Below, one piece after another: positions 11,779-14,599 of a stretch of DNA of 41,265 nt. How positions within the stretch are numbered: position 1 is the first letter of the stretch; the number at the start of each line of letters is the position of its first letter. The position numbers and the translations under genes are program-made. Source of the DNA: Actinomycetota bacterium (GTDB lineage Bacteria > Actinomycetota > Thermoleophilia > Gaiellales > Gaiellaceae); contig VAXB01000019.1 in assembly GCA_005883995.1 (NCBI GenBank), positions 1-41,265 on the forward strand, given 5' to 3'. The notes beneath the pieces are model-generated. The model was not told the origin of the DNA. It searched no databases and saw only the letters and a program-made list of their open reading frames with translations.

Positions 11779-12109
11779 TTGGCGCTCCTCGTCCGCATCG
11801 TGCTCGCGGCGATCCTCGTCGCCGCGGCAGCCGCGAAGGCGCGCCCCCTCCGCACCTCTGCGTCCGCGCTCGCGACCTACGGCGTCGCGGAGCCGCTCCG
11901 CGTTCCGGCAACCCTTCTGCTCATCACGACCGAGGCGGCGTTGGCAGTCGGGGTCGCAGCCGGCATCGACGGCGCAGCGTATGTCGCGGGAGGCCTCCTC
12001 GCAGCGTTCGCCGTCCTGCTCGCGGTCGAGATCCTCCGCGGGCGAAGCGGGCAGCCGTGCGGATGCTTCGGAGCGGGATCGCGCGTCGGGCTCGCTGCGA
12101 TCTTGGGTC
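11779..12109 (+). CDS. MauE/DoxX-like redox-associated membrane protein, apparently lacking its last TM segment; ORF stays open to 12597
   Basis: Three TM segments, RSGQPCGCFGAGSRVG motif; TTG start; end given is only the point where similarity stops, not a stop codon. Confidence 0.6.
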
Positions 12110-12583
12110 GTGATCGGCCTGGCGTTCTCGTTCGCGTGCATCGTCGTTCTCGCCGTCGCCGTGCTCGCGCTCGCGCGGGAGGTCGGGGTCCTGCGCCTAC
12201 GCCTGCGCACCGAGTCGGCACTCGACATCGCCGAGGAGGGACCGCCGCTCGGCTCGCGCGTCTCGATCCCGGCCAGCCCGGGGCACTCCGCAGCCGGCGG
12301 GCTGACGCTGGCGATCTTCGCGTCGGACGGGTGTCGGCTCTGTCGGGCGCTCGAGCCGGTCGTCGCGGCGTTCCGCCGGGATCCGCTGGTCGCGGTCGCC
12401 GAATTCGACGAGATTCGCGACGCGGACGTGTGGCGAGCCCTCGACATCCCCGGGAGTCCCTATGCGGTCGCACTCGACGGCGACGGCCATGTCCGTGCGA
12501 AAGGAACGTTCAACAGCTACGGCCAGCTCGAGGGGATCCTCGCGACCGCCGAGCGCAACGCTGTCGAGGCCGTCCATGCCTGA
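12110..12583 (+). CDS. Thioredoxin-like (MauD-like) membrane-anchored protein
   Basis: N-terminal TM VVIGLAFSFACIVVLAVAVLALARE; redox motif SDGCRLCRALEP; NSYGQLEGIL. Confidence 0.75.
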   Translation: MIGLAFSFACIVVLAVAVLALAREVGVLRLRLRTESALDIAEEGPPLGSRVSIPASPGHSAAGGLTLAIFASDGCRLCRALEPVVAAFRRDPLVAVAEFDEIRDADVWRALDIPGSPYAVALDGDGHVRAKGTFNSYGQLEGILATAERNAVEAVHA

Positions 12584-13151
12584 CGTCGCCGCGCTGACCG
12601 ACGAGCTGGCCGCGTCGACGTCGCGCCGCGGCTTTCTCGCACGCGTCTCGCGAATGCTCGCGCTCGCCGCAGGCGCCGATGCCGTCTCGGCGCTCGTCAA
12701 GCCGGGCGAAGCCGACGCGTTCCACTTCTGCGGGCACATCTACACCACCGATTCGTGCCCGCACCCAACCGGCTTGCCGCGCGTCGACGCCGGCGGCTTC
12801 CCGCTACGCGCCGCCGACGGACATCCGGTCGATGATCTCGGCCGGGCGGTCAACGCGAACGGACAGCCTGTCGACGGGAACGGCCGCGTCATGCTCGATC
12901 CGGATGGCCGGCCGCTACCCTCGGCGCCGAGGACCCAGGTCTGCCAGCACGGGGTCGCGGCGAGGCTGAATCGCCCCACGCACATCGACGGTGCGTGGTA
13001 CCGGTGCTGCGGCGGCCACATACGCAAGCTGATCGACTGCTGCGCCTACACGCGGCAGCGAATCAACGGCGACGCCGCCTTGACGGGCTATTGCTACGCC
13101 GGGCGCCACGTCTACTGCGTCATGTACTACGACACAAAAATTCCGTGCTGA
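12577..13151 (+). CDS. Tat-type exported Cys-rich protein resembling methylamine dehydrogenase light chain (MauA-like)
   Basis: TSRRGFLARVSRML twin-arginine signal; FHFCGHIYTTDSCPHPTGLPR; WYRCCGGHIRKLIDCCAY; 10 Cys; sits next to MauD/MauE-like genes. Confidence 0.6.
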
Positions 13152-14599
13152 CAGTGACGCTGATCCTGGTCGCGTTCGTCGCGGGCGTCACCGGGACGTG
13201 GTCCCCGTGTGGCTTCTCGATCATCGACACGATCAGCGCGCCGCGACGACGGACAACGGCATCGTGCGTCGCGTTCGCGATCGGAGCGTGCGCCGGGGGA
13301 GCCGTCACGTTCGCGTTCCTCGCGAGGATCGGCACCGCTGTCCGCGGAACCGGCGGCCTGCACCCCGCGTTCACCGCACCTGTCATCGCGCTCGCCGCCG
13401 CGATCACAGAGGCGCGCAACGCCGCGATCCTCCCCCAGATCCGACGTCAGGTTCCGGAGCACTGGCGGCGCGTCCTGCCGCTTCCCGTCGCGGTCGGCCT
13501 GTACGGCGTCCTGCTCGGCCTCGGCTTCACGACATTCGTGCTCACGTTCGCGTTCTGGGCGCTCGTCGGGTTGACCGTCCTGCTCGCGACGCCACTGATC
13601 GGGGTCGCCGTCGGGATCGCGTTCGGCGTCGGACGAGCGCTGCCGGTCGCACTCGTCGCACCGGTCGCGCACCTGCCGGTCGGCCGACGGATCGTCGACG
13701 CGATGGCGCAGCGGCCGGCACTCGTGTCCGTGCTCCGTCGCGCCGAGGCTGTCGGCATGGTGGCGATCGCCGTTGCGTCGTTCGGGGTCACGGCTGTCGG
13801 CGCAGCAACGAAAGTTGGCGCCGGAACCGACCCCAGCACGTCGGGCTCGGTCGTCGTCTGGACGTCACCGGGAGGCGGCATCGAACGCGACGAAGGTGCC
13901 GCGACGACAGCAGCCGTGCCGCCGCACGCAGCCGTCGGCGGCTCGATGATCGCCTGGCGAGACGGCGAGACCGTTCAGGTCGCCCAGCTCTCCGATCTCA
14001 CGGAGGTGTTCGCCGTCGACGTTCCGGGCGTCGATGCGATTGCCGTGTCCGATACGTGGCTCGTGACGCGTGCGCGGGTCGCCGGCATTGACACGCTGGC
14101 GGTGCGCGCGCTGTCGTCGCCCGACGACGTCCATACGCTTGCAACCGCCCCACGTGCGTCCCAGCTCGGGCGCCCGGCACTCGCCGGAAGTGAGCTCGTG
14201 TACCACGTCGTCTCGTCCGCCGGCAGCCGCATCGTCGCCGTCGACCTCACGACGTCCAAGTCGCGCGTCGTCCGCCGCTCCTCCTCGGCGATCGTGACGA
14301 ACCCGTCGGTCCTCGGCGGGACGCTCGTCTACGACCGTCAAACCGATCTCGCACAAGTCGTCGAGATTGGGCCGCTGACGACGACCGGCCGCGACCGCGT
14401 CGTCTATCGCACCGGCGCTCCCGCCGTTCACGACGTCGGACACGAGCCTGGCTACAGCCACCGCACGCGCACGGCGCAGCCGCGTCCTGCAAAGTGGACG
14501 TTGTGGACGACGGCGCTGTCGACGAGCCGGGTGTACGTCACGCTCCTCCCGCGCACGGGCAGCGCTCGGGCGGCGCAGCTCGTGTCCGTCTCACGCTGA
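13148..14599 (+). CDS. CcdA/DsbD-like transmembrane domain fused to C-terminal beta-propeller-like domain
   Basis: VTLILVAFVAGVTGTWSPCGFSIIDTI and further TM segments; C-terminal repeats (VVVWTSPGGG, GSMIAWRDGETVQVAQL, GSELVYHVVSSAGSRIVAVDL, GGTLVYDRQTDLAQVVEI). Confidence 0.65.
   Translation: MTVTLILVAFVAGVTGTWSPCGFSIIDTISAPRRRTTASCVAFAIGACAGGAVTFAFLARIGTAVRGTGGLHPAFTAPVIALAAAITEARNAAILPQIRRQVPEHWRRVLPLPVAVGLYGVLLGLGFTTFVLTFAFWALVGLTVLLATPLIGVAVGIAFGVGRALPVALVAPVAHLPVGRRIVDAMAQRPALVSVLRRAEAVGMVAIAVASFGVTAVGAATKVGAGTDPSTSGSVVVWTSPGGGIERDEGAATTAAVPPHAAVGGSMIAWRDGETVQVAQLSDLTEVFAVDVPGVDAIAVSDTWLVTRARVAGIDTLAVRALSSPDDVHTLATAPRASQLGRPALAGSELVYHVVSSAGSRIVAVDLTTSKSRVVRRSSSAIVTNPSVLGGTLVYDRQTDLAQVVEIGPLTTTGRDRVVYRTGAPAVHDVGHEPGYSHRTRTAQPRPAKWTLWTTALSTSRVYVTLLPRTGSARAAQLVSVSR

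What the first reader, a model, noticed from the sequence alone, without database searches (positions are those of the whole stretch)
11779..14599. Mau-like disulfide-maturation cassette without a recognisable MADH heavy chain
Seen: four consecutive same-strand ORFs encoding a DoxX/MauE-like membrane protein, a membrane-anchored CxxC thioredoxin (GCRLC), a twin-arginine Cys-rich protein (10 Cys; FHFC..DSC..VC..WYRCCGG..DCCAY..YC..YC..PC) and a CcdA/DsbD-like membrane protein with an extra propeller-like domain. Established: in methylotrophs MauD and MauE are needed to form the multiple disulfides of the MADH light chain MauA. Here no MauB heavy chain, MauG or CxxCH cytochrome is visible, yet an exported propeller-like protein (10079-11710) is just upstream and an M14 peptidase just downstream. 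Inference: a dedicated export/disulfide system for a MauA-like scaffold with a different partner and function.
Basis: partly seen in the sequence, partly recalled or inferred. Interest (0 to 1): 0.8.

Follow-up and report, generated by a model that had tools for sequence, protein, structure and literature searches.

The report
Mau-type maturation cassette, often selenium-dependent
These soil bacteria carry a compact gene set, related to the helpers that build methylamine dehydrogenase, that most likely makes the disulfide bonds of an unknown exported cysteine-rich protein; in many relatives its key membrane enzyme carries selenocysteine in place of cysteine, which has apparently not been described before.

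Summary
The cassette is real and conserved. In about 45 Thermoleophilia loci a MauE-MauD (thioredoxin) gene lies next to a Tat-exported protein with 10 invariant Cys, nearly always followed by the 'CcdA-like' gene. The last is MauF: it matches Paracoccus MauF over its whole membrane domain (hhalign 99.4%, E 2e-21), with an extra beta-propeller. The set is therefore the MauF/MauE/MauD helper trio of methylamine dehydrogenase (MADH) with another client. The client is not a MADH light chain by any test (profile, Pfam, AlphaFold/Foldseek; one invariant Trp, not two), so the 'MauA-like scaffold' part fails. A second actinobacterial class has trio plus client without propeller; other loci have the trio with other Cys-rich clients.

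Unexpected: in 43 relatives the invariant MauF Cys codon (WSPCG) is an in-frame TGA, never TAA/TAG. It is followed by a covarying SECIS-like hairpin (39/39 alignable copies) and goes with selA in 24/24 near-complete genomes. MauF is thus a predicted selenoprotein family, absent from a 2026 list of 119.

The window's MauF has Cys, though tRNA-Sec and partial selB lie in the window. The window's MauE-MauD gene is broken by a 74-nt deletion. Client function is unknown.

The parts
11779..12096 (+). MauE domain (DoxX-like membrane protein with CGCFG motif); N-terminal part of what is a MauE-MauD fusion gene in relatives; frame is lost at about 12096
   Evidence: PF07291 E 1.4e-14; fusion HMM positions 4-106 at 11788-12096, E 1.2e-18
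12071..12110 (+). Frame break: 74 nt present in the nearest relative (L020) are missing here, removing the last MauE transmembrane stretch and shifting the frame
   Evidence: DNA alignment of window with L020; HMM hits overlap in two frames
12109..12583 (+). MauD/thioredoxin part with membrane anchor and CxxC (GCRLC); possible GTG start at 12109 (ORF listed from 11981)
   Evidence: Fusion HMM positions 125-284 at 12071-12565, E 4.1e-45; TIGR02661 4e-8; a relative matches Paracoccus MauD at 4e-18
12576..13151 (+). Client: Tat-leader protein, 10 invariant Cys, one invariant Trp, G-P-D-G repeat in the middle
   Evidence: Homologs; conservation; model pLDDT 91
13145..13801 (+). MauF domain (membrane part) with WSPCGFS motif
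   Evidence: hhalign with Paracoccus and Indioceanicola MauF: probability 99.4, E 2.4e-21
13208..13210 (+). TGT codon of the invariant MauF Cys; in 43 relatives this codon is TGA (predicted selenocysteine)
13802..14596 (+). C-terminal beta-propeller domain fused to MauF (residues about 220-484)
   Evidence: AlphaFold model; Foldseek PDB propeller matches, best E 8.5e-7
8818..8908 (+). tRNA-Sec gene (selC)
   Evidence: ARAGORN; Rfam RF01852 66.8 bits
2..1036 (+). C-terminal part of selB (Sec elongation factor), cut by the contig start
   Evidence: TIGR00475 match at 2-427; ORF 2-1036

Best explanation
The cassette is a dedicated MauF/MauE/MauD thiol-redox module in the cytoplasmic membrane that forms or corrects the disulfides of its co-encoded, Tat-exported, 10-Cys client. 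MauF carries one invariant redox residue in its first membrane segment (WSPCG), which in many relatives is selenocysteine, decoded from UGA by a SECIS hairpin just downstream. Electrons probably pass between the client, MauD (CxxC), MauE (CGCF) and MauF (Cys/Sec). The propeller fused to MauF in Thermoleophilia probably holds the client near the membrane. Shown here: gene order, MauF/E/D homology, invariant client Cys, recoded TGA with covarying hairpin, co-occurrence with selA. Inferred: direction of electron flow, disulfide formation in the client, role of the propeller. The window's copy uses Cys, and its MauE-MauD gene is broken, so this copy may be impaired.
For: Conserved order MauE-MauD, client, MauF in about 45 Thermoleophilia loci and MauD, client, MauF with MauE adjacent in a second class. 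MauF homology E 2.4e-21; MauD homology 4e-18; the real mau operon has mauF-B-E-D-A. Client Cys all invariant. Sec: TGA at the MauF Cys codon in 20, 17/17 and 6 further loci, never TAA/TAG although TAA+TAG make 38% of local stops. Hairpin: 39 sequences, stem 2 94.9% paired, 5 of 7 pairs with compensatory change, 0/500 shuffles for the covariation score (subset); alignable Cys copies pair only 2-4 of 7. selA in 38/43 TGA versus 12/25 Cys genomes (p 4e-4), 24/24 versus 11/17 at >=92% completeness. FdhA with one in-frame TGA in five of the same genomes. selA-selB directly upstream of the cassette in G178, and selB upstream in G198.
Against: No experiment exists for this client. Tat usually exports folded proteins, so when the disulfides form is unclear. 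Five TGA genomes lack a detectable selA (all drafts at 78-91% completeness). The sequences are related, so shuffle and Fisher values overstate independence. The window's own MauE-MauD gene is frame-broken. The propeller is absent in the second class and stands alone in two complete genomes, so MauF does not need it.
Confidence: 0.72

Rival explanations
1. The module works the other way: it feeds electrons to or from the client, which is a redox-active exported protein (electron carrier or enzyme), rather than building structural disulfides.
For: MauF resembles CcdA/DsbD membrane regions weakly (DsbD_2 0.056), which carry reducing power outward; conserved CGH and WYRCC motifs in the client.
Against: All 10 Cys are invariant, as expected for structural disulfides; the closest known trio (mauF/E/D) serves maturation (literature cited in PMC7794033); no cytochrome or heme motif is conserved nearby.
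Confidence: 0.18
2. The TGA is an ordinary stop; translation restarts at the ATG four codons later, so there is no selenocysteine.
For: An in-frame ATG follows the TGA (MVET...), and TGA is the commonest stop here (62%).
Against: Cys homologs and Paracoccus MauF read straight through WSPCG in the same frame; no TAA/TAG in 43; covarying hairpin; selA co-occurrence; a restart would delete the first membrane segment of MauF.
Confidence: 0.03
3. The client is a divergent MADH light chain (MauA-like scaffold, possibly with a tryptophan-derived cofactor) paired with a new propeller heavy chain.
For: Same helper trio, similar Tat leader with TSRRxFxxR, propeller fused to MauF; loci L129-L133 have clients with GWWxC that align weakly with MauA (E 0.0013).
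Against: hhalign of the window family with MauA: probability 0.5%; no Foldseek hit; only one invariant Trp; propeller missing in a whole class.
Confidence: 0.06
4. The client is the precursor of a ribosomal natural product (RiPP), as decRiPPter proposed for mauE/mauD clusters with >=8-Cys ORFs in Streptomyces (PMC7794033).
For: Published precedent for mauE/mauD beside Cys-rich ORFs.
Against: Tat leader, about 145-residue mature protein with high-confidence globular model, conservation across two classes, no modification or peptidase gene conserved.
Confidence: 0.05

Closest known systems
mau gene cluster of Paracoccus denitrificans (mauF-B-E-D-A)
   Same: MauF, MauE and MauD homologs beside a Tat-leader Cys-rich small protein; same WSPCG, CGCF and CxxC motifs
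   Different: No MauB, MauC or MauG; client not homologous to MauA by any test; MauE and MauD fused; MauF fused to a propeller; MauF Cys often Sec
CcdA / DsbD membrane redox proteins
   Same: Membrane redox protein with SPC-type motif in the first helix (weak DsbD_2 match)
   Different: Only one conserved Cys/Sec; the strong profile match is to MauF
Known prokaryotic selenoprotein families (Table 1 of PMC13188914, 119 families/subfamilies)
   Same: In-frame UGA with SECIS and Cys homologs; listed membrane redox examples include the rhodanese/DsbD fusion TsoB (UxxxxU)
   Different: No MauF-type or WSPU family is listed; no NCBIfam or Pfam model matches above cut-off
decRiPPter mauE/mauD candidate clusters in Streptomyces (PMC7794033)
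   Same: mauE (and in one family mauD) beside an ORF with at least 8 Cys
   Different: MauF and Sec not mentioned; proposed as RiPP modification

Membership tests
MauF family | Homology over the whole MauF membrane domain | tested here: met
   hhalign probability 99.4, E 2.4e-21, MauF columns 72-268
MauF family | WSPCG(Y/F)S motif, PQxRxQVP, LYGxxLGLxxxTxV, GRxLPV | tested here: met
MauF/MauE/MauD maturation module | MauE and MauD encoded next to MauF and a Cys-rich exported protein | tested here: met
   MauE PF07291; MauD 4e-18 to Paracoccus MauD
MauF/MauE/MauD maturation module | Required for disulfides and stability of the client | not testable with these tools
   Needs deletion mutants and mass spectrometry
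MADH light chain (MauA, PF02975) | Sequence/profile similarity to MauA | tested here: not met
   PF02975 no hit; hhalign probability 0.5%; PDB search no MADH
MADH light chain (MauA, PF02975) | MADH light-chain fold | tested here: not met
   Foldseek against PDB with pLDDT-91 model: best E 0.64, no MADH among the 50 shown
MADH light chain (MauA, PF02975) | Two Trp for TTQ | tested here: not met
   One invariant Trp in 44 sequences; only one Trp in the window's mature protein
Selenoprotein (for TGA-type MauF relatives, not the window copy) | In-frame TGA at a redox Cys position with Cys homologs | tested here: met
   43 TGA, no TAA/TAG
Selenoprotein (for TGA-type MauF relatives, not the window copy) | bSECIS hairpin shortly downstream with G in the first two loop positions | tested here: met
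   39/39 alignable TGA copies with 5-7 of 7 pairs and G at loop position 2; covariation 0/500
Selenoprotein (for TGA-type MauF relatives, not the window copy) | Sec machinery in the genome | tested here: met
   selA in 24/24 genomes >=92% complete, 38/43 overall
Selenoprotein (for TGA-type MauF relatives, not the window copy) | Selenium present in the protein | not testable with these tools
   Needs 75Se labelling or mass spectrometry

The most novel reading that the evidence does not exclude
MauF/MauE/MauD is a general, client-swappable disulfide system for Tat-exported Cys-rich proteins in Actinomycetota, with MADH maturation only one special case; its catalytic MauF residue is selenocysteine in a large share of lineages, making MauF a new selenoprotein family that may help keep the Sec trait in genomes without Sec-containing formate dehydrogenase.
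Probability: 0.5. Interest if true: 0.85.

Novelty: new variant of a known kind. Interest (0 to 1): 0.76.

Why it matters
As far as I know the biochemical role of MauF has remained unclear. Repeated Cys/Sec exchange at one invariant position marks its likely catalytic residue and makes it directly testable. It adds a membrane redox family to the selenoproteins and shows the Mau trio used for clients other than MADH. The UGA would make automatic annotation start MauF too late and lose its active site, so databases probably carry truncated copies.

Tried and rejected
Client as MADH light chain: a hand alignment of Cys motifs looked attractive but all formal tests failed. Upstream propeller ORF and M14 peptidase as partners: not conserved. 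Genes lying between client and MauF in L062/L063 (PhoD-like phosphatase and others): insertions, not parts. TAG reported inside the MauF match of G067: it is the ordinary end of a separate Cys-type MauF gene. Plain folding z-scores of the post-TGA region were uninformative; covariation was needed. selB and tRNA-Sec matches alone were confounded by EF-Tu and by other tRNAs, so selA was used. PF02975/PF06433 searches found nothing, but their controls did not ring.

Full report
Observation. The four ORFs are present. The first two are MauE (PF07291, 1.4e-14) and a MauD-like thioredoxin with GCRLC. The third starts at ATG 12576 and has a Tat leader and 10 Cys. The fourth starts near GTG 13145. In relatives MauE and MauD are one gene of about 290 aa.

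Conservation. The client was found in 12 of 61 relatives, 47 of 399 genomes of the class and in a second class of the phylum. All 10 Cys and one Trp are invariant in 44 aligned sequences. HMM scans of the locus entries put MauE-MauD before the client and, nearly always, the membrane-propeller gene after it. In the second class the client lacks the middle repeat, the membrane protein lacks the propeller, and MauD and MauE are separate but adjacent. The upstream ORF and M14 peptidase are not conserved.

Identity of the fourth gene. Pfam and NCBIfam gave nothing above cut-off. The Paracoccus mau cluster supplied MauF: its STWSPCGYS and PQRRAQVP...LYGLSLGLDYLTYV...GRFLPV match the window's GTWSPCGFS and PQIRRQVP...LYGVLLGLGFTTFV...GRALPV. 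Profile comparison over the whole domain gives probability 99.4, E 2.4e-21. Residues about 220-484 form a propeller. In two complete genomes the propeller stands alone beside the client and a Cys-type MauF lies elsewhere.

Client. No MADH light-chain similarity by Pfam, PDB sequence, profile or fold search. The leaders of the client and of true MauA proteins resemble each other, which fits a shared maturation route.

Selenocysteine. The MauF Cys codon is TGA in 20 Thermoleophilia loci, in all 17 loci of the second class where MauF could be read and in 6 loci with other clients; it is Cys in the window and 24 other genomes. No TAA or TAG occurs at this codon, although they form 38% of stops in these loci. 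A 7-bp stem with a 5-nt loop lies at nt 29-47 counted from the T of TGA, with G at loop position 2 in 39 of 39 alignable copies; stem pairs covary (94.9% paired, 5 of 7 pairs with double changes, 0 of 500 shuffles) even where the encoded amino acids differ (TPAVCGSR, TPVVHGGR, TPLGERGR). Three further TGA copies appear to carry a hairpin at another offset. Four alignable Cys copies pair 2-4 of 7. selA occurs in 38 of 43 TGA genomes and 12 of 25 Cys genomes; at >=92% completeness 24/24 and 11/17. Five genomes with TGA-type MauF also hold a formate dehydrogenase with one in-frame TGA, an independent sign that Sec decoding is in use there. In G178 selA and selB lie just upstream of the cassette, in G198 selB does. 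The window holds partial selB and tRNA-Sec but a Cys MauF.

Other clients. TM-only MauF copies (TGA or Cys) sit beside MauE, MauD-like proteins and unrelated Tat Cys-rich proteins. Those of L129-L133 have a GWWxC motif and a weak profile match to MauA (E 0.0013).

Literature. The 2026 inventory of 119 prokaryotic selenoprotein families does not list MauF or a WSPU family (PMC13188914). Searches for selenoprotein with MauE, and for methylamine dehydrogenase with selenocysteine, found nothing relevant. decRiPPter had noted mauE/mauD beside Cys-rich ORFs in Streptomyces and cites work showing that MauE and MauD are essential for methylamine metabolism (PMC7794033). That mauF is also needed for MADH is my own recollection, not tested here.

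Mechanism and limits. Best reading: a membrane thiol/selenol relay MauF-MauE-MauD that forms or repairs client disulfides. Homology, recoding and co-occurrence are shown; electron direction, client oxidation and the propeller's role are inferred. Only the open-access library was searched, so an earlier report in a subscription journal cannot be excluded.

Noticed in passing
window 2-1036 and 8818-8908: Partial selB and tRNA-Sec in the same window as a Cys-type MauF; the genome also has a partial selA match.
   Followed up: partly
L129-L133: MauE, MauD-like and MauF (TGA or Cys) beside a Cys-rich Tat protein with GWWxC and a weak profile match to MADH light chain; possibly a divergent tryptophan-cofactor protein family.
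   Followed up: partly
L135, L136: Further Tat Cys-rich proteins beside MauE, MauD-like and TGA-type MauF relatives; in L135 the TGA sits in a TST-U-GLS context.
   Followed up: no
L016:7203-8530 and L018:7167-8530: MauE, MauD and client read as one uninterrupted ORF with an internal Tat motif, either a triple fusion or an internal start.
   Followed up: no
L139:4501-4716: Thermomicrobium roseum plasmid: unannotated MADH-light-chain-like stretch (TIGR02659 1.5e-12) next to a 596-aa MauE-containing protein.
   Followed up: no
window 16489-19977: Very long exported ORF with tandem repeats and two near-identical C-terminal domains, close to the cassette; its relation to it was not tested.
   Followed up: no
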